Of a stretch of DNA of 64,000 bases, positions 6,301 to 45,354 are shown one piece after another. A program made the position numbers and the translations under genes. Every line of letters starts with the position of its first letter. Position 1 is the first letter of the stretch. The notes below the pieces were generated by a model. The model was not told the origin of the DNA, searched no databases, and saw nothing but the letters and a program-made list of their open reading frames with translations. This DNA comes from Antedon mediterranea (lineage: Eukaryota > Echinodermata > Crinoidea > Comatulida > Antedonidae): positions 3,764,288 to 3,828,287 of the forward strand of contig NC_092676.1 of the NCBI RefSeq assembly GCF_964355755.1, written 5' to 3'.

Positions 6301-9300
6301 TTTTGCAAAATAAATAGCATTTTTCATTTTTATTGGCAAGTTCTTAATTCTCTTCCATTTTTCCTTTTAATAATACTGTCACTGACAAACATAAACATAT
6401 TGACATGATAAATGATTATTTGTCTAAAGAGCTGCTTTTTCTCTCGTCATTCCTTTGGGATTTTGGAACAACAGACGCATAACTTTGCCGATTTTGGCGC
6501 ATACTTCCTTTTGAAAAGTCAATGTCGGCGTAACTGACACGTGAAGCATTTGATGTCTTATTATATTTTCCGTTGCTCTTAACATTCGTAAAATCAATAT
6601 TTGCGTAGCTGATTCTATAGTCTGTTGTTGGCTCATAATCATTTGCTTGATTTTCATTGGCTGTTCTCTGTGATTTAGGAACCACTGCCGTATATCCATT
6701 GTTAGTTTTATTATCGTTTATTTTAAGCTTTGATGCTTTATCATCTATAACAAAATCGAATGAAGCACGTTTAGTTTCTTTGACCTTTCTATCCGACACA
6801 GGAAAAACATTTGTGTACCCGAAACGTGAATTTTCTATTTTATTTACGGAAAGTCCTTTAATTTCGTCAACCATATTGTTTTCAGTTTTATTATCTTTTG
6901 AATTCGTTGACATGTCAGGGTTTCGTTTTGACTTGGGAATAACCTTGGCGTAACCCAAGCGAAGATCTTTCATCTTCTCAGCTGATGGTTTATCCGTCAT
7001 CTCTAAACTTAAGCAGAAATCTGAGTGAATGGACTTGGTCTTATTTTCTTTATCACCACGCTTAGATCGGGGCACAACAGAAGCGTACGTTATAACAGAA
7101 GGTTGTTTTACATCTAGCATAGCAGTAATATGTTCTTCCGTTGCCGCATGAATGGTGTTACGAACCGATTTCACCTGCGGCGGTTTGGCGTTTGGTTTTG
7201 ATATAACATCCTGTTTATCTACGTTGAGTACAATATTAGCGTAACCGGTGGACGCTTTCGGTTTATTTGCTATTGGAGCGGCTGCCTTATGTCCATTGTA
7301 TCTCGCATTTACAGCTACAATTGAATTACTATTTGTTAGTCTTGCGTTTGTCTCGGTTGTTGTAACATTCTGATAGAGGGAGACTCTATGCTCTTGTGTT
7401 CCTAATTCAATTTGCTCTATATTCGTGGTATCATCTGTAACAACACTGCATGTTACCGCATACCTAATCTCACTAGTTTTCTTCTTATTTTTTCTTCTTT
7501 TACAACAACCAAACGTAAACAGACTCGTGACAAGTATAAATCCAATGCCACCGAAGAGTAGGCCTAGGATCATCGCAAACTTTGTTGACTCAACATCCGA
7601 CTTATTTTCATAAGGAACCGTTTGTCTGCCGTCTGCGCTATACGTTGGCTTAACAGTCGTTGGATCATTCTTTGTAATCACTATCATATCGTTTCCAACT
7701 CCTACCGAGTTACTCGCGATGCACGATAAAGCTGATCCCGTTGAAACAGTATCGGGAACTGTGATAAGAAAAGTGGAATAATCCTGTATGATGTAGCTAC
7801 TGATTGGTATCAGAGGATCAACAATCCATGTTGGTATTGCGCTAGGTCGTGCGTCAACCTTGCATTCGTACGATAACATTGATGTATGTCGCAACTGTAC
7901 TGTCGGTGCGTAATTAACTGCGAGTTTATCGACATAACAGCTTCGAGTCTCTCCTGTTGATTGTTTTGTCGCGTTACATACAAACTTGGCGTTATGATCG
8001 CTTCTATTTATCATGAACGTATATAGGTTAAATACGTACCTTCCCGGCGACACGATAACATCATCCCTTCTCCATGTAAAGTCAATGCCAGATTCACTTT
8101 GGCTTAATTGGCATAAGATACGCATAGTCTCACCTTCCGAAAGACTTGCGCCCTCATTCAATCTTGCGCACTTTGGCTCCGAAAACGTCCAAGCGATTGA
8201 TACCTTTGTTGAACTGTACAAAACTTTAGCGTCATTTTTATCGAATACATTCAGGTAAAATTCTAAATATTCATAATCGACGGGAGCCTTGAACACAAGA
8301 CTATAATTATTTCGCTCTTGCGAGATTGTAAAATAATTTTTAAAATCTTCGGTGATGAGTTTATTCCGACTGATAATATCGTTATCTGCACCTTTCATCC
8401 ACTTAACCACATGCTCCTCAGTCAAACCGCTGATTATGCACTGTATAGTAATGGATTCGTCGGGAAATGCTGAAATCGTTTTTGCTGGCGTTGTTATAAA
8501 CACAACGTTGGCGATAGTATGACATTGTAGCATAACAAAAGCAAAGATTACCTTGTAAATGAGTACTTTTGGCCAAGTAAACATGGTGAAAGTATTTTTT
8601 TATACTTAAAGAAAACAAAATATGTACTTTTTAACCTTTTGAAAACAGGTATTTTGTATTATAATTTCTTCTGTTCCATAAAATCTTTATAATCAATTTA
8701 AATCCTTTTTGAGTTGTTCAGTTTTAAACAAACTCATTTTCTTGAACTTTATTTCTTGATTTTCCTTTCATAGTCTGCTGTAAAGTGTATTCAAAATGGA
8801 TGTTTTTATTTAAACTTGCAATTTGTATACACTGGCTTGTTGTATAATTATGCTATCCACAACATAAGGTCCTTCTTATGCACATACTGTGTGTATTTCG
8901 CCAAACAGTTTCGCGTCAAATAGTGTCCATCAAATATCAATTAGGTTCTTTCAACCGACGCTTTGCTTTTAACAAAGGAAGTCTATCTTCTTTCACACAT
9001 GTACAATATTACAAACTGCATAATTAATTCCATAAATAGTTGATTTCTGTAGAATTCCTGTACACCATATCTACAGCAACTAGGTGTACCCAATCCATGT
9101 TACATTGTCAGAAACTGGCTGCTATTGTTAAAACACTCAGGAGATGGCCTCTCTCTAAACAATGATACAATTCACTTCTTATAGCCAGCTTCCTCTATGT
9201 CATCTGAACTTAGTTGGAAATCTGTAAAGTTAATTTAAAACAAGACTAACGAAATTGACTGACTGACTCAGTCAGACTACGATTGCGGCATTAGTCACTC

Positions 9301-30000: not shown

Positions 30001-33000
30001 GATGAAATGATATTGATTTTCATGGTCAGGGGCTGGTTGGATGTATAAGGTTATATAAACTAGCCTGTCGGGCTAGTAAATCAGTTTTATTACTAGCCCA
30101 AATTCAATTTTACTGACCATGAATACAAAACAAAAACAAATCTTGTTATAGGTGGTTGTTGTTGGAGTGGATCGAGTTGTAATTTGTCAATAGAAAAAAT
30201 CCTGACATATGACAGGACTTGAACCTAGGACCATTGAAGTGGTAGCCAAGCATCATAACCACCAAGCCAGTACAACTCCACTCCTAAATTACTTACGGTA
30301 GACTTACGTCCTTGAGTTACATCTAAATGGTAACCAAGCTGTAATATCATTCCATTTTTTTTATTCTGTTTTGAATTCAAGAGTAGAACAAAATTTGAAA
30401 AAAATTTTAAATTTTAATAATTCTTTTGGAAGTCTAAATCTGCTTTTCAGAGAGCTTAGAGCTCTGTAAAAATTATATATAATAAAGAAAATATACTTCA
30501 GATAATTACACTGTAATATTTGACAATACAAGTGTGCACATTATGTACTCCTTACACTACTACATTGATAGTTAATGCGTTTCAGAACATATTTACCATA
30601 AATAACTTTCATTACATAGTTATTAGCCGCCAGCAGCAATCGTTTGTACAATTTTGTTTGTTAGTTATACGTGTTAAAGGAAGGTCACAACAGCTTTTTA
30701 ATACAAAAAGTGAATTATAAACTAAAATATAGTGAGCATATATTTTACCTTGATATAAATAACAAAGAAAAAAACAAACATTTTTACCTTGATAAACAAA
30801 ACATTATTTAATTCTCTGTATTTAATTCAATATGTAAATTTAACCACAAAAATTAACCACAAATAAATGCAAAATAATTGTGGAATGGTTTATTTTAAAT
30901 GTAAGAATAACAAATAATACTACATTTTTTTTATGTAAACTTTGAATTATTTTAAGCGTGGTTCCTACTAGCGACGCAACGCTTGGACGTAACGCAACGC
31001 AAATGAATTGACCAATCACAAGCGATGGCTTATTCGCTTGTGATTGCTGTCTATAACTTCGCTTGTCATTGGTTAAAACGCTTGCGTTGCGTTTACGTCC
31101 TTGCGTTGCATTCTAATTGGAACCAAGCTTTAGTAGTTGAATGCAGTGTACTCACTGCTTTTATAATAAAAACCCCAACCATCAAGAACAGGAGGTCTGC
31201 AGGTCGGGTGCCAGGGTAGTTTTCTGGAATCTGGGTTCTAGTCCGATCTTACTGCAGTAACTACATTTTGTTTACGTTTTTAACCGATTTACACAAAATT
31301 TATCAAGCTTGTTTCAGGTTTAATCATGCACTGTTTGTTACAGTGACTGGCTCAGAATCTTGTGTATTGAAAAACATTACTTACAACCATACGTTATTGC
31401 AATAAAAAAAATTAACTTTCTGCAGTAACTGCAGTAGAATAATTTTGCCATGATCCCTATAATTTTGCCCTTATATAAATTATAAATTGTAACATTTACT
31501 ACTGCAGTAGAATAATTTTGGCCTTATTTATAAATTGTAACATTTACTACACTGTGCATGCAAATAATAATTATTTAAATATATTATTACTTGTACACTA
31601 ATGTTTTTAAGTGATTTATTGCATATCACAAATAAATTGAAACCAAACCTTTTAAAGAAAGTACAAATACATTTCTGTTGACATTTGCCATGATTTGTTA
31701 TTCCATTTAAAAATAAGTATTGAATTTATGAAAAATTAACAGGAAAAAGAATTATGTAATTTATGTGTTCCAGTTACAGTAATCAAACTATGATCTACAA
31801 AATTATTTATTTGTTGTTATTTAATTTCTACCAATAATAGTTGTGTATTGTGTGAGTGAGTGGCCGAGCGGTTTAGACAGTGTAACCGTAATTGCATAGC
31901 CATAACATCAGCAAGTGTTTGAGGCTCACTAGCTCCGTGGTTCTGGTGGTAGAATTGGTCTTCTCAGTGTACATATCTTATCTAGCTAATGTGCACTTTT
32001 AAGAACCTCGTACATATCTTTCGAGATGAGTAGGGGGTTACCCCGGTGTACTAATACTACACACAGCCACTGTCGCAAACACCCCTCCAACAAAGTTCTA
32101 TATTTGTGGATGCATGGATAAGTGAAAATCTAAATGTGATTAATTGCTTAATTAATGAAATGGGAATAAAAGAGTTGAAACCATCACTGAACAAAGTGAC
32201 TCGATCAAAGAAAAATTGATTAACGAGAGGGGGAGCTTATTTTTTTAGGCTTTTCAGTCTTTGTTACTAATTGTTTTTAAGTATCTGTCACCCTTTGGTG
32301 CTTTATATTTTGTTAATTTTACTCATTTATTCTTGAGAATGGTTCCACGATGGTTTTGAAACGTCAATCTTTTTGTCATTAAATCTTATTTTAAAGTAAT
32401 ATTGTAATGATGTGATTATTAAATTACCAAGTAAATTTGATAATAACATTTCCAAAACATTTTGAATATTACAGAATCTCAGGCAGTAAAACAAAAATAC
32501 AAATGACATTCATTATTTAATGTTTGTTCACTATTGATTTGAACCTGTGACCTAATTACATCAACACTAGCATTAATTGACTGCACCTACCACGCAACAA
32601 TATTCATTTTACATACATAACATGATGCTGTATTATAAATTACAGATTACATATAATCTATTCCATAAAAACATCACATTTAATGCTTTGCGTTCCTAAA
32701 AGCTATTTTATTTTATCGCATTCCGAAAGATATTCTTGATGAATCATAATTTTTTAAACATTATCTTCACATCAGGTATCACGGAGCCGTGTCACGAGAT
32801 GTTGCTGATTGGTTACTGCAAGAGGCAGGCGAGGGGAGCTACCTTGTCAGAGAAAGTCAAAGAGCTCCTGGTAGCTACACATTAGGTTTAAGGTGAGAAA
32901 AAATATTAAATGTTTATCTACAAAACTCACATTTACACCAAATCAAGTAATTTATAATTTATCTAAAAGCTTATCACATATAAATAGTCGTACACCCATG

Positions 33001-36000
33001 TAAAGTTTGGTTGTGGCATTCATATGGTTTTACAAAGACATGATGGCAGTATCCATATATAGCCGTAGTATGCCCATATAAAGTCTTTATATGGGCATAC
33101 TATGGCTATATATGGATACTGTATGGGTAATATCATGGCAGTATCTATAGCCATAGTATGCTCATATAAAGACATGGTAATATCATGGCAGTTTCTATAT
33201 AAAGCCACAGTATGCCCATATAAGGACATGGTAATATCACGGCAGTGTCCATATATAGCCATAGTATGCCCATATAAAAAAGACATGGTAATATCATGGC
33301 AGTATCCATATATAGCCACTGTACCATAATGAAAATTGTATGGCAATATTTATATAGCCATTGTATGCCCCAAAAATGGTAATATTGTGGCAGTAGCTAT
33401 AGTATGACCGTATAAAGACATATTTAATATCATTGCTGTATCAATATATCCCTTGTATGCCCATATACATATGCTTTGTCTTTTAAGGCGAGCGAGTGCG
33501 ATCACTCACCTAACACACTCCTAAACTCCCATAGTGCGATTTACAAAACAAAACACTTGAATTTGGTAAACTTCTACACCAACATACAAACAGCACACCT
33601 ACAGCATCCCTGAATGTATTGAGGGGTTCAATCTGTAATGCACCTATAATTTTCAAAAGACAAGGCCTGCCATATATAACATCAAAGAATATATATCACA
33701 AGAATGAGTATTCCGCGATTTTTGCATGAGAAATTTGTATCAGAGAGCTCCAGTGAGTGATGCCCGCCCTCATAAGGGCGGATGTATACATACTAAATAA
33801 GACTTGATTTAATAGATATTATACATGTCACATTAAATAGAATTATGATAATAGTTTTTGCAATTGTAAACTATTCTATAATACATATTTATTAACAAAC
33901 TAGTGTACATTCACTTTTACAGACAATTATTTACTAACATGCTAAGTTAGTTCACAAAAAAGGCCTAACACAGCAACACCAAAAATCAACGAATCGTTAC
34001 TCAGCACGGCCTATTCTTTACCATTGCCGTGTACTACTCTACGCCCAGTAAATTAAGTATTGTTTTTATGATATAAATTAGTATAAAATACATTTTATTA
34101 ATAGGACAAAATGTTAAATGTCATTAACATTTATTTGTTTTACCAGAAACAAGTTAAATATAGGAATATTATTAAACTATCCTTCGTGAAAACGCGTAAA
34201 CAACAACACGCCCGGTCACGCTATCGTAGCGCCCGGTTGATAAAGCAAACCGTTTATACGGCAGTTTTTACTAAATAAATTGCATAAAACAAACAATTAA
34301 ATATCCAAATAGTATTTAACATGATGTTGGCATGTAGTCGATAACATTTTTTATCATGAAAATACTACCGGTGGTCTAGCCTTTGATTATTGAAACCGTC
34401 ACAAAAAGTTGTATACATCCCAGATACATCCACACTTATGGCGGCGCCCTACCACATGGACAATATTACTGTTACAGGGAAAATCGCGGATTACTCATTC
34501 TTGTGATATATATTCTTTGATAACATATATAAATACTGTATGATGATGTCATCTTGCCCTTAAAAGGCATACTTATTTTGTTAAATGTGATTTCCTTGTA
34601 CAATAACCTAGTGTATTGTGTCACCTTCAACCACTTGATGATGGCTGCATACCTATGAGATTAATACCAAACACTGATGTATTGTTTTAAATAAGATAAA
34701 TGACTTATTTGTTTCTTAATGAGCTCATGCTTGAAATATTCTCTCAAAGGACAGTAATAGAATACATCTTTAAAATGAGTAAACCATTAAATGCATTTTC
34801 CTGTTGATCGATATTGAATGTAAACTATAGAGGGGGCATGGATAAATTAGTTAGGACTGCATGCTTAGACTCAAGGGTCTGCAACATTTATTTCCAAAAT
34901 ACATAGCCATTTGCCTGCGGTATAAAAACATTTTAATATATAAAATTATAAGCAATATTGAATTAATTATTTTTTTTTTTTTGTTCAAAGAATATTAAAT
35001 GTAGGAATAATTTTCATAATATTTCTGGAAGATACTAAAGTAATGAAATTATTGTTAATTTATTATATCACAATCTACATTGAAGTGATCTTTTGGTATA
35101 AAATTTTAATTTTTTTTTGTAGGTATGGTGGTATGACGAGAAACTATAAACTGTTCTATGACGGAATGCACTACATAGCAGATAAACGGTTCAACTCAAT
35201 GAACGATTTGGTAGAGGACGGACTAATCCACTTTTATATGGAGGATAAGGCAGCTGATTATATTAAAGTAAACAATGGAATATTCTATTTTTTTATATTA
35301 TTTATTTTTTCTTTCATTCTCAATGGTCCCTTTAAGAGGTAATGTCAACTGAAAAAATAATTCTAAATTTTTTTTTTAATATGCCATTTTAATGTTACAT
35401 AATAAATATCCACTTTGGCAAAAATTGTATCGAAAAACAATTATTTACCTGAAAATCTTAAATTTAAAGCAAACAATAGTCAAATTGGCTGCAAGCAAAT
35501 GGGTTTTTGGTTGAATTTAACTATTTATTTTGTCATTTTATACTACTTTTTTTGTGTTTTTTTTTCTACGGAAGTGATTAACTTTATTCTTTAATCTTCA
35601 TTTTTCATGTTTTTGAGGAACAATATATCTTTAAACAATAGTAAAAAAAAGGTAAATAATTTTATAACTTTTTTTAAAGGTCATGGATGCTGAGCCAATC
35701 TACGATAAACATTCAAAATATGCAACCGTGCGATTACCACGGCAACGGAGCTCGGTGGACAACATGGACCAACACCACAACTTTAGTAGCCACAGGTTAG
35801 AAGACGAAAGACCACCGGAATACAACAACCAATCAGTGGTTGGTAATAGTTTTGATTTATATATACATTTATACTTGGTAACCTCTTCAGTCAAAGACTG
35901 GTCTCCCAGAGGGGCCCAGTTATGATCAGTAGCTGTGATGTACTAATACACCGGGGTGACCCCCTACTCGTCTCGAAAGATGTACTAGGTTCTTTAATGT

Positions 36001-43105: not shown

Positions 43106-44030
43106 TTTTGATAAAATGTGTGCTAAATATTTCTGGAGGAACTTTGGGAATTGTAGGGATATTTTTGCCTTGTTGTGGTCAAAGGTCAGGGTTCACAATC
43201 CTGGTAAAAGTTAATGATTCATGATCCTAGTTACAGTAAAAATTGTTTTTATTCATGGTCACAGTTCAAAAGTCATGCTGATATCAGTTCAGAGTTCATG
43301 TCCAGGTCACAATTCAGTTTTTCATAATCCATGTCACAGGTCAGAGTTCATGATCCTAGTCAAAGTTAATGACTGTTCCTAGACCTGATGAATGCTTCCA
43401 AGGTCCTTTAAAGTTAATAATATAAAGTACTGATGTATTTCTTATCATTTTGTGTTTTGTAAAATGCAAAGGTTGGTTAATTAATCTATTTATTCATATT
43501 TAATTGTTTAATTACTATTTTGCTTTACAGTTTTATTTTTTATTTCTATTACCAGGAAATAGTGAAATTTCCTGGTCTGGTATTACTTACAACATGGAGT
43601 AATTATTATTCCATACAACGCTTAAGTTATTAAAATTATGTACTTATGTTTATGTCACAGATACTAACATATTAATAATAAATGCTGGTTTGACTTTAAA
43701 ATACTTAGATCAATAACATTTTATGCGGTACATGTAGGGATGTTTAAATGGCATCAGTAATACTCTTTCCTCCGACACATTAAAACAATTTAACATAATA
43801 TCACAATTAAAGTGATGGTGGCATGGTGCTTACCTTCTAATCCAAATGTTAAGGGTTCGGTTCTTGAAATTACTAGTTCTTGTGGCGATAATACCATTAA
43901 GTCATTATGAAACATCCTCCGATTCAACTCACTTTTAGATGGCTGAAGTTAATAAAATAATATTGAAAAAATTGATAGCAATATTTGCATATAATATGGA
44001 GCCAATTGCATTTGTATAATATTGTACATT
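43106..44030. other. Chimaerin 3' UTR and flank
   Basis: A run of diverged GTCA-containing repeats (TTCATGATCC, GTCACAGTTCA, GGTCAGAGTTCATG) at 43170-43400. Then comes duplicate member 2 (43581-43815), whose AATAATAAAT could give a poly(A) signal near 43675. A tRNA-like fragment (TGGTGGCATGGTGCTTACC ... AAGGGTTCGGTTCTTG) is at about 43816-43872. Confidence 0.4.
43581..43815. repeat. Dispersed duplicate, member 2
   Basis: Same order of blocks as 42045-42362, shorter by about 80 bases, same orientation. It may be a non-autonomous mobile element or a local duplication. Confidence 0.75.
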
Positions 44031-45105
44031 TGTGTCTATATGCCTATGTTCAACATACAGTGTGTCTATATGTCTATGTACAAAACATAGTGTGTCTATA
44101 GACCTATATTCAACACATAGTGTGTCTATATGCCTATGTTCAACACATAGTACATCTATATGCCTATGTACAACACACAGTGTGTCTATATGCCTATGTA
44201 CAACACACAGTGTGTCTATATGCCTATGTTCAACACATAGTGTGTCTATATGCCTATGTACAACACATAGTGTGTCTACATGCCTATGTTCAACACATAG
44301 TGTGTCTACATGCCTATGTTCAACACATAGTGTGTCTACATGCCTATGTTCAACACATAGTGCATCTATATGCCTATGTACAACACATAGTGTGTCTAAA
44401 TGCCTATGTTCAACACATAGTGTGTCTATATGCCTATGTACAACACATAGTGTGTCTACATGCCTATGTTCAACACATAGTGTGTCTACATGCCTATGTT
44501 CAACACATAGTGTGTCTACATGCCTATGTACAACACATAGTGTGTCTACATGCCTATGTTCAACACATAGTGTGTCTACATGCCTATGTTCAACACATAG
44601 TGTGTCTACATGCCTATGTTCAACACATAGTGCATCTATATGCCTATGTACAACACATAGTGTGTCTAAATGCCTATGTTCAACACATAGTGTGTCTATA
44701 TGCCTATGTACAACACATAGTGTGTCTACATGCCTATGTTCAACACATAGTACATCTATATGCCTATGTTCAACACACAGTGTGTCTACATGCCTATGTT
44801 CAACACATAGTGTGTCTATATGCCTATGTTTAACACATAGTGTGTCTACATGCCTATGTTCAACACATAGTGCATCTATATGCCTATGTTTAACACATAG
44901 TACATCTATATGCCTTTGTTTAACACATAGTGTGTCTACATGCCTATGTTCAACACATAGTACACCTATATGCCTATGTACAACACACAGTGTGTCTATA
45001 TGCCTATGTACAACACACAGTGTTTCTACATGCCTATGTACAACACATAGTGTGTCTATATGCCTATCTTTAACACATAGTGTTTCTATATACCTACAGT
45101 ATATT
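44030..45105. repeat. 30-bp minisatellite, ~36 units
   Basis: Very regular head-to-tail units of TGCCTATGTTCAACACATAG plus TGTGTCTATA. Because 30 is a multiple of 3 and stops are absent in two frames, it makes a 365-codon ORF (decapeptide CLCSTHSVST) and an overlapping 237-codon ORF (YVQHIVCLHA). I see no promoter, splice signal or domain, so a protein-coding role is unlikely. Confidence 0.93.
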
Positions 45106-45354
45106 CAGGGATATCTCTGTGATATGTAAATACAAACGCTGCTTTAAAAACTATACAGACGGCAATCTTTAAACATTAAAAGCTATACACATCATTATAT
45201 GTCTGTAACATCAATGCAACATTAATGTTGTTTTTGTATTGTTTTTTGTAATCGGCTACTGTAAATTTTTCTTCAAAAGAACAATCTTTCCGAAATTAGG
45301 ATTAGTCTATTATGGGTGTGTATCCCCCTCTTCATGTTTATCAAATGTTTGTAC

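What the first reader, a model, noticed from the sequence alone, without database searches (positions are those of the whole stretch)
6416..8584. Undescribed Ig receptor with nine YxxV/I tail motifs in an invertebrate
The tail repeats two motif classes. Five copies follow Y[AT]xVxPxSxR (Y500, Y545, Y590, Y631, Y702) and three follow YA[ND]I (Y448, Y660, Y685); Y404 adds SLYQNV. Five sites match [SIVL]xYxx[ILV], the ITIM consensus. The transmembrane helix is uncharged, as in inhibitory receptors. Known ITIM receptors usually have one to four motifs, so nine would be a high-valency SH2 docking platform. The PxSxR extension is unfamiliar and puts a potential PKC-type serine beside each tyrosine.
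Basis: partly seen in the sequence, partly recalled or inferred. Interest (0 to 1): 0.78.

Follow-up and report, generated by a model that had tools for sequence, protein, structure and literature searches.

The report
Ig receptor with nine-motif tail
A gene in an unidentified animal encodes what looks like a cell-surface immunoglobulin receptor whose tail repeats nine short tyrosine motifs; it belongs to a large family of single-exon receptor genes in the same genome, some of which have swapped outer parts and signalling tails with one another, much like immune or self-recognition receptors elsewhere.

Summary
Window 6416-8584 (-) is one open frame of 722 aa: signal-like N terminus, three Ig domains, uncharged transmembrane stretch, 361-aa tail. 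Nine tail tyrosines fit Yxx[ILV] (shuffle mean 2.3; 1 of 20,000 reaches nine) and five fit the ITIM consensus. Five copies of YxxVxPxSxR are synonymously near saturation (pS 0.88) yet keep the pattern, so the copies are old and were maintained.

Three searches of the window's genome give 160 merged match places, most in long open frames. Nine is not the record: a distant family member has eleven. In 20 members (19 on C7, 1 on C2) tail class is uncorrelated with the D1-D2 tree (7 changes, the commonest shuffle value), and two well-supported sister pairs carry unrelated tails. A tandem-SH2, SHP-2-type phosphatase gene is present.

Best reading: a multivalent SH2-docking, probably inhibitory receptor from a reassorting single-exon family. 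Expression, phosphorylation, inhibition, ligand and species are untested; the tail has no second match in the genome and no orthologue could be searched.

The parts
6416..8584 (-). single open coding frame of the 722-aa receptor
   Evidence: G000:C7:3770706-3772871
8510..8584 (-). signal-like N terminus, residues 1-25 (boundary inferred)
   Evidence: hydrophobic segment after Met
8180..8509 (-). Ig domain 1, residues 26-135; C49 and W62 present, the near-invariant second Cys is L111
   Evidence: Pfam I-set 30-96; alignment A1
7907..8179 (-). Ig domain 2, residues 136-226, with C158, C203 and a further conserved pair C139, C216
   Evidence: Pfam Ig_3 147-206; invariant columns of A1
7631..7906 (-). 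Ig domain 3, residues 227-318 (C241, W253, C288); boundary inferred
   Evidence: conserved columns of A1
7511..7579 (-). transmembrane stretch, residues 336-358 (end inferred), uncharged
6416..7501 (-). cytoplasmic tail, residues 362-722 and stop
   Evidence: a query of residues 398-722 found no other match in the genome at E<=1
7373..7375 (-). Y404, SLYQNV
7241..7243 (-). Y448, YANI
7085..7087 (-). Y500, [10 protein letters not shown]
6950..6952 (-). Y545, [10 protein letters not shown]
6815..6817 (-). Y590, [10 protein letters not shown]
6692..6694 (-). Y631, [10 protein letters not shown]
6605..6607 (-). Y660, YANIDF
6530..6532 (-). Y685, YADIDF
6479..6481 (-). Y702, [10 protein letters not shown]

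Best explanation
A type I cell-surface receptor with a single-exon coding region. Three Ig domains bind an unknown ligand. Nine spaced Yxx[VI] sites in the tail are phosphorylated by a Src-type kinase and serve as a multivalent docking strip for SH2 proteins, most likely the genome's SHP-2-type tandem-SH2 phosphatase, with a mainly inhibitory output. It is a lone branch of a large single-exon receptor family, some of whose members have exchanged ectodomains and tails, so that one recognition module can be coupled to different outputs. Shown: the frame, the Ig domains by sequence, the motifs, their age, the family and its mosaics, the phosphatase gene. Inferred: expression, surface location, phosphorylation, SH2 binding, sign of the signal, immune or self-recognition role.
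For: Open frame and Ig domains. Motif excess over shuffles. The five YxxVxPxSxR copies differ at most synonymous sites (pS 0.88) while Y, V, P, S, R stay (pN 0.03) and the other five columns change (pN 0.48). The low pN at the five residues follows in part from how the copies were picked; the evidence is the age shown by pS together with the shuffle test. Uncharged TM. SH2 and PTP exon matches in order at C3:14097618-14104506, readable as N-SH2, C-SH2 and PTP exons; one SH2 exon hits SHP-2 structures at E 1.1e-38, ahead of SHP-1. An SH2 and a kinase exon 4.4 kb apart on one strand near C11:18.07 Mb. Spacings of 25 and 17 residues (Y660-Y685-Y702) suit a tandem-SH2 protein (recalled). 160 merged places. 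Tail reassortment.
Against: Four of the nine sites also fit the Grb2-type YxN (motif recalled). Yxx[ILV] also fits the endocytic YxxPhi signal (recalled). Most relatives' tails show no individual excess: 9 of 50 frames reach shuffle p<0.05. D1 of the target lacks a conserved Cys. No transcript, orthologue or polymorphism data. Positive selection is not shown: D1 omega 1.03 in the nearest C7 group, bootstrap P(dN<=dS) 0.43. No structure model of use.
Confidence: 0.5

Rival explanations
1. Multivalent adaptor scaffold with activating or adhesive output: the tail recruits Grb2, PI3K or PLC-gamma type SH2 proteins, as in nephrin- or SLAM-type receptors, rather than a phosphatase.
For: 4 YxN sites against 1.4 expected, 189 of 5000 shuffles as high. 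The best solved relative of the ectodomain profile is the adhesion receptor SYG-2, E 1.7e-36. Other family tails hold YVNNP and YEN-type sites.
Against: Five sites fit the full ITIM and eight have A or T at +1 and V or I at +3. The profile hit is broad (7,679 PDB sequences at E<=0.01), so SYG-2 says little about function.
Confidence: 0.3
2. The repeated YxxPhi sites are sorting signals for AP-2 and drive receptor internalisation, without phospho-signalling.
For: All nine sites fit Yxx[ILV], a subset of YxxPhi (recalled).
Against: Five old copies share P+5, S+7 and R+9 as well, which YxxPhi does not need; V at +3 is a weak Phi (recalled).
Confidence: 0.08
3. Chance motifs or a dead gene copy.
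For: No transcript evidence; the tail has no other match in the genome.
Against: 722 codons without a stop in AT-rich DNA; 1 of 20,000 shuffles reaches nine; old motif copies maintained.
Confidence: 0.03

Closest known systems
Botryllus schlosseri fester co-receptors (FcoR; PMC12065747, passages)
   Same: Large multigene family (53 loci there) of type I Ig receptors with long tails that can hold ITIMs, hemITAMs and a core Y-x-x-I/L/V motif.
   Different: FcoR have a sushi domain; none was found in the Pfam scans of the target or of 32 ectodomains. No sequence comparison was possible.
Hydractinia Alr genes (mentioned in PMC12065747 passages)
   Same: Invertebrate candidate allorecognition genes with ITAM/ITIM motifs.
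   Different: Sequences not held; ectodomain, gene structure and homology not tested.
Oyster CgIgIT2 (PMC11999971, passages)
   Same: Mollusc Ig receptor with an immunoreceptor tyrosine motif. The review text calls it ITAM and activating, yet cites a title calling it an inhibitory receptor.
   Different: Five Ig domains against three here; homology not tested.
Vertebrate paired Ig receptors such as KIR, LILR, Siglec, SIRP (recalled)
   Same: Similar ectodomains on different tails; ITIM tails with uncharged TM.
   Different: Those genes have introns (recalled). Here coding regions are single-exon and both exchanged tail classes hold Tyr motifs. Short tails occur in L010, L083, L086 and L089 (30, 6, 12, 20 aa); basic residues in the hydrophobic stretch were seen only near its N-terminal edge, in L009, L048 and L083.
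SYG-2 / nephrin-type adhesion receptors (PDB 4ofy)
   Same: Best solved relative of the three-Ig profile.
   Different: Broad Ig similarity only; tail not compared.

Membership tests
ITIM-bearing inhibitory Ig receptor | Ig ectodomain and a single uncharged TM, type I order | tested here: met
   by sequence:
ITIM-bearing inhibitory Ig receptor | at least one [SIVL]xYxx[ILV] in the tail, above chance | tested here: met
   5 sites, mean 0.6 in shuffles, 3 of 20,000 as high
ITIM-bearing inhibitory Ig receptor | cognate tandem-SH2 phosphatase in the genome | tested here: met
ITIM-bearing inhibitory Ig receptor | phosphorylation, SHP/SHIP recruitment and inhibition | not testable with these tools
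   needs bench work
ITAM receptor | Yxx[IL] x(6-12) Yxx[IL] | tested here: not met
   none in the target; present in 7 of the other 49 frames
Botryllus FcoR | sushi domain among the Ig domains | tested here: not met
   none in the target at E<=1 nor among the 12 Pfam families matched by 32 ectodomains at E<=0.01
Hydractinia Alr | homology of the ectodomain | not tested
   sequences not held
Oyster CgIgIT2 | five Ig domains | tested here: not met
   three by sequence; homology not tested
Single-exon Ig receptor family of this genome | ectodomain similarity and C49, W62, C139, C158, C203, C216, W253 | tested here: met
Single-exon Ig receptor family of this genome | near-invariant second Cys of D1 (common, not defining) | tested here: not met
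   the target has L111

The most novel reading that the evidence does not exclude
The genome carries a germline-diversified recognition system (allorecognition or immune) of about 160 or more single-exon Ig receptors. Ectodomains and SH2-motif tails are modules exchanged in frame by recombination, probably within the conserved D2-D3 block since exon shuffling is impossible, so that similar recognition domains are tried with different outputs. The target is a long-standing high-valency inhibitory member.
Probability: 0.3. Interest if true: 0.82.

Novelty: new variant of a known kind. Interest (0 to 1): 0.6.

Why it matters
[quoted passage not shown] A single-exon family in which tail class is independent of ectodomain phylogeny would be a clean natural experiment on how recognition and signal sign are coupled. 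Single-exon genes can be amplified and expressed directly, and the SHP-2-type partner gene is located for binding tests.

Tried and rejected
Structure: AlphaFold2 of the ectodomain without an alignment gave mean pLDDT 38 and was not used; no fold search was run. Species: COX1 was not found in the held genome. Of 15 contig ends read, 8 are N and 1 of the other 7 shows CCCTAA repeats. 11 contigs exceed 22 Mb. Three cheilostome bryozoan assemblies also have 11 pseudomolecules but sizes of 339, 784 and 235 Mb, against 354 Mb here (search listings), so I name no species. The in-window SH2 match is a chimaerin-type gene, not a shown partner. Positive selection on D1: an early partition gave omega 1.15; with corrected domain boundaries 1.03, P 0.43, and 1.00, P 0.48 with two more members, so unproven. 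'Nine motifs is exceptional': rejected (L087). Stops listed inside matches of the C3:18.83-18.91 Mb array: in the two fetched copies with listed stops (L099, L101) the frame runs through the tail and the stops follow it, so no sign of recoding.

Rows dropped. 52 of the 53 matches were fetched (C3:12635048 was not). Of the 56 frames matched, 6 without a TM were left out, leaving 50. L011 and L026 gave no Met, leaving 48; L020 and L048 have short ectodomains, leaving 46 for the tree. Of these 46, 32 were aligned as A1. The tree uses 20 of the 22 members of the two tail classes (L020 and L048 left out). The groups were chosen by me from the tree. 20 further loci were picked by me, mainly for long frames, arrays or remote chromosomes.

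Full report
Observation. The frame at 6416-8584 on the minus strand runs from ATG to stop over 722 codons. It has a hydrophobic N terminus, two Ig domains found by Pfam and a third seen in the family alignment, an uncharged transmembrane stretch with a basic stop-transfer, and a 361-residue tail. Of 20,000 tail shuffles one reaches nine Yxx[ILV], three reach five ITIMs and none reaches eight Y[AT]x[VI].

Age of the motif without orthologues. No relative of this genome is held, so the orthologue test could not be run, and residues 398-722 have no second match in the genome at E<=1. Within the gene the five YxxVxPxSxR copies can be compared with each other. At Y, V, P, S and R the proportion of synonymous differences is 0.88 and of non-synonymous 0.03; at the other five columns 0.78 and 0.48. 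The copies were picked by these five residues, so their low non-synonymous value is partly built in; the informative part is that the synonymous sites are near saturation. In the searched tail DNA the only repeat of 15 or more bases is one 21-base pair, 180 bases apart. The copies are old, and their residues were kept or regained. This does not say which partner reads them.

Family. A search of the window's own genome (354 Mb; 11 contigs of 22-41 Mb and seven small ones) with the target gives 53 matches, 52 of them in open frames of 342 aa or more and 4 with a stop inside. Searches with two relatives give 97 and 70, with stops inside 16 and 1. Merged, these are 160 places. The tool calls its counts lower bounds; against that, a few genes may count twice and the most remote matches may be other Ig families. 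The largest arrays are C3:18.70-18.91 Mb (54), C11:15.81-16.13 (20), C3:11.85-11.90 (19), C7:3.66-3.77 (14, the target at its edge) and C7:2.41-2.47 (12). In 46 of 52 fetched loci a Met, an ectodomain of at least 230 aa, TM and tail lie in one frame; in 45 of these the Met is followed by a signal-like segment (not L022). C49, W62, C139, C158, C203, C216 and W253 are invariant in the 32 aligned ectodomains, and the target lacks the near-invariant D1 Cys. On a midpoint-rooted tree of 46 ectodomains, shown without support values, the target is a lone branch beside the C7 groups.

Tails. BLAST of 48 tails (links at E<1e-6) gives three classes of 22, 11 and 11 and four singletons, the target among them. 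Yxx[ILV] totals 109 in 50 tails against 63 from shuffles; singly 9 of 50 reach p<0.05, the target most strongly, and most C3 tails show no excess. Among 20 further loci L087 has 11 such sites in a 465-aa tail against 2.9 expected. L087 was found with the C11 relative L027 (E 1.3e-34), not with the target itself, so it is a distant family member.

Reassortment. Of 20 members (19 on C7, L007 on C2), 4 (L005, L008, L040, L043) have a best ectodomain partner whose tail gives no BLAST match. L005 is 99-100% identical to L004 from 200 bases upstream to about codon 23 and 81-94% to about codon 263, then 44-63%. L043 is 93-99% identical to L009 from 186 bases upstream to about codon 87 and 72-87% to codon 237; from there to codon 387 it is 73-89% identical to L025 and 40-56% to L009, after which both are low. 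L043 has its TM at residue 248 and so appears to lack D3. On a D1-D2 tree of the 20, the two tail classes need 7 changes, the commonest value in 2,000 label shuffles; the sister pairs L005/L004 and L043/L009, of opposite class, have support 0.995 and 0.982, while several other nodes are weak. In three C3 groups dS falls from D1 (0.36-1.28) to TM plus tail (0.10-0.14), with tail omega 0.04-0.15, as expected if tails are homogenised and constrained while outer domains diverge (interpretation mine). In the nearest C7 group D1 omega is 1.03, against 0.59 for D2 and D3; in the two groupings of the C7:2.41-2.47 Mb array D1 is 0.66-0.72. Positive selection is not shown.

Partners. The SH2 search gave 53 exon-level matches. 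At C3:14.0976-14.1045 Mb three SH2 matches are followed by PTP matches; the translated pieces read as N-SH2, C-SH2 and PTP segments, and one exon hits SHP-2 structures at E 1.1e-38, ahead of SHP-1. An SHP-2-type enzyme is therefore encoded. No binding test was possible.

Mechanism. My best reading is ligand binding by the Ig domains, phosphorylation by a Src-type kinase, and multivalent recruitment of the SHP-2-type phosphatase through Yxx[VI] pairs, with an inhibitory result. The main rival is an adaptor scaffold, since four sites also fit YxN. A sorting-signal reading is less likely, because the five copies share residues out to +9.

What is known. Seven full-text searches on ITIM or Ig families in invertebrates, intronless ITIM receptors and bryozoan allorecognition showed no title or abstract start on such a single-exon family. 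I saw only listings: 20 of 21, 15 of 18, 0 of 0, 20 of 92, 8 of 11, 4 of 4 and 15 of 84 papers, in a library that lacks most subscription journals. The nearest described systems are Botryllus FcoR and Hydractinia Alr (PMC12065747, passages) and oyster CgIgIT2 (PMC11999971, passages). PMC13326412 was seen in passages; the other bryozoan genome notes only in listings.

Verdict. Function, expression and species remain open.

Noticed in passing
window 32777-32932 and 34962-35342 (+): Exons of a chimaerin-type gene (SH2 match; N-chimerin 3cxl at E 1.3e-14 for the second piece). Ordinary.
   Followed up: yes
window 43935-45129: Minisatellite-like stretch with open frames on both strands (389, 369 and 243 aa; repeats such as RHVDTLCVEH), probably not a gene.
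   Followed up: no
L016 (C7:2439086-2441536): Relative with 33 tail tyrosines in a repeating set of sites (YSQM/PDYKECE/NEIYEGGV/VYSEEE, about eight rounds).
   Followed up: partly
L087 (C7:807373-810579): 902-aa frame with 11 Yxx[ILV] sites in a 465-aa tail.
   Followed up: partly
L083, L086, L089, L010: Family-like frames with very short tails (6, 12, 20 and 30 aa). L083's hydrophobic stretch begins IRIRI. Possible partner-dependent or non-signalling forms.
   Followed up: no
L010 and L019 (C7:3.696-3.731 Mb): Longer ectodomains (about 450 aa) with an extra segment before the TM.
   Followed up: no
L009, L011, L012, L043: One search lists one stop inside the match for each of these four; some copies may be pseudogenes.
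   Followed up: no
G000 C5 and C6: 153 PTP-domain exon matches, with dense runs near C5:7.6-8.1 Mb and C6:26.3 Mb, suggesting an expanded phosphatase family.
   Followed up: no
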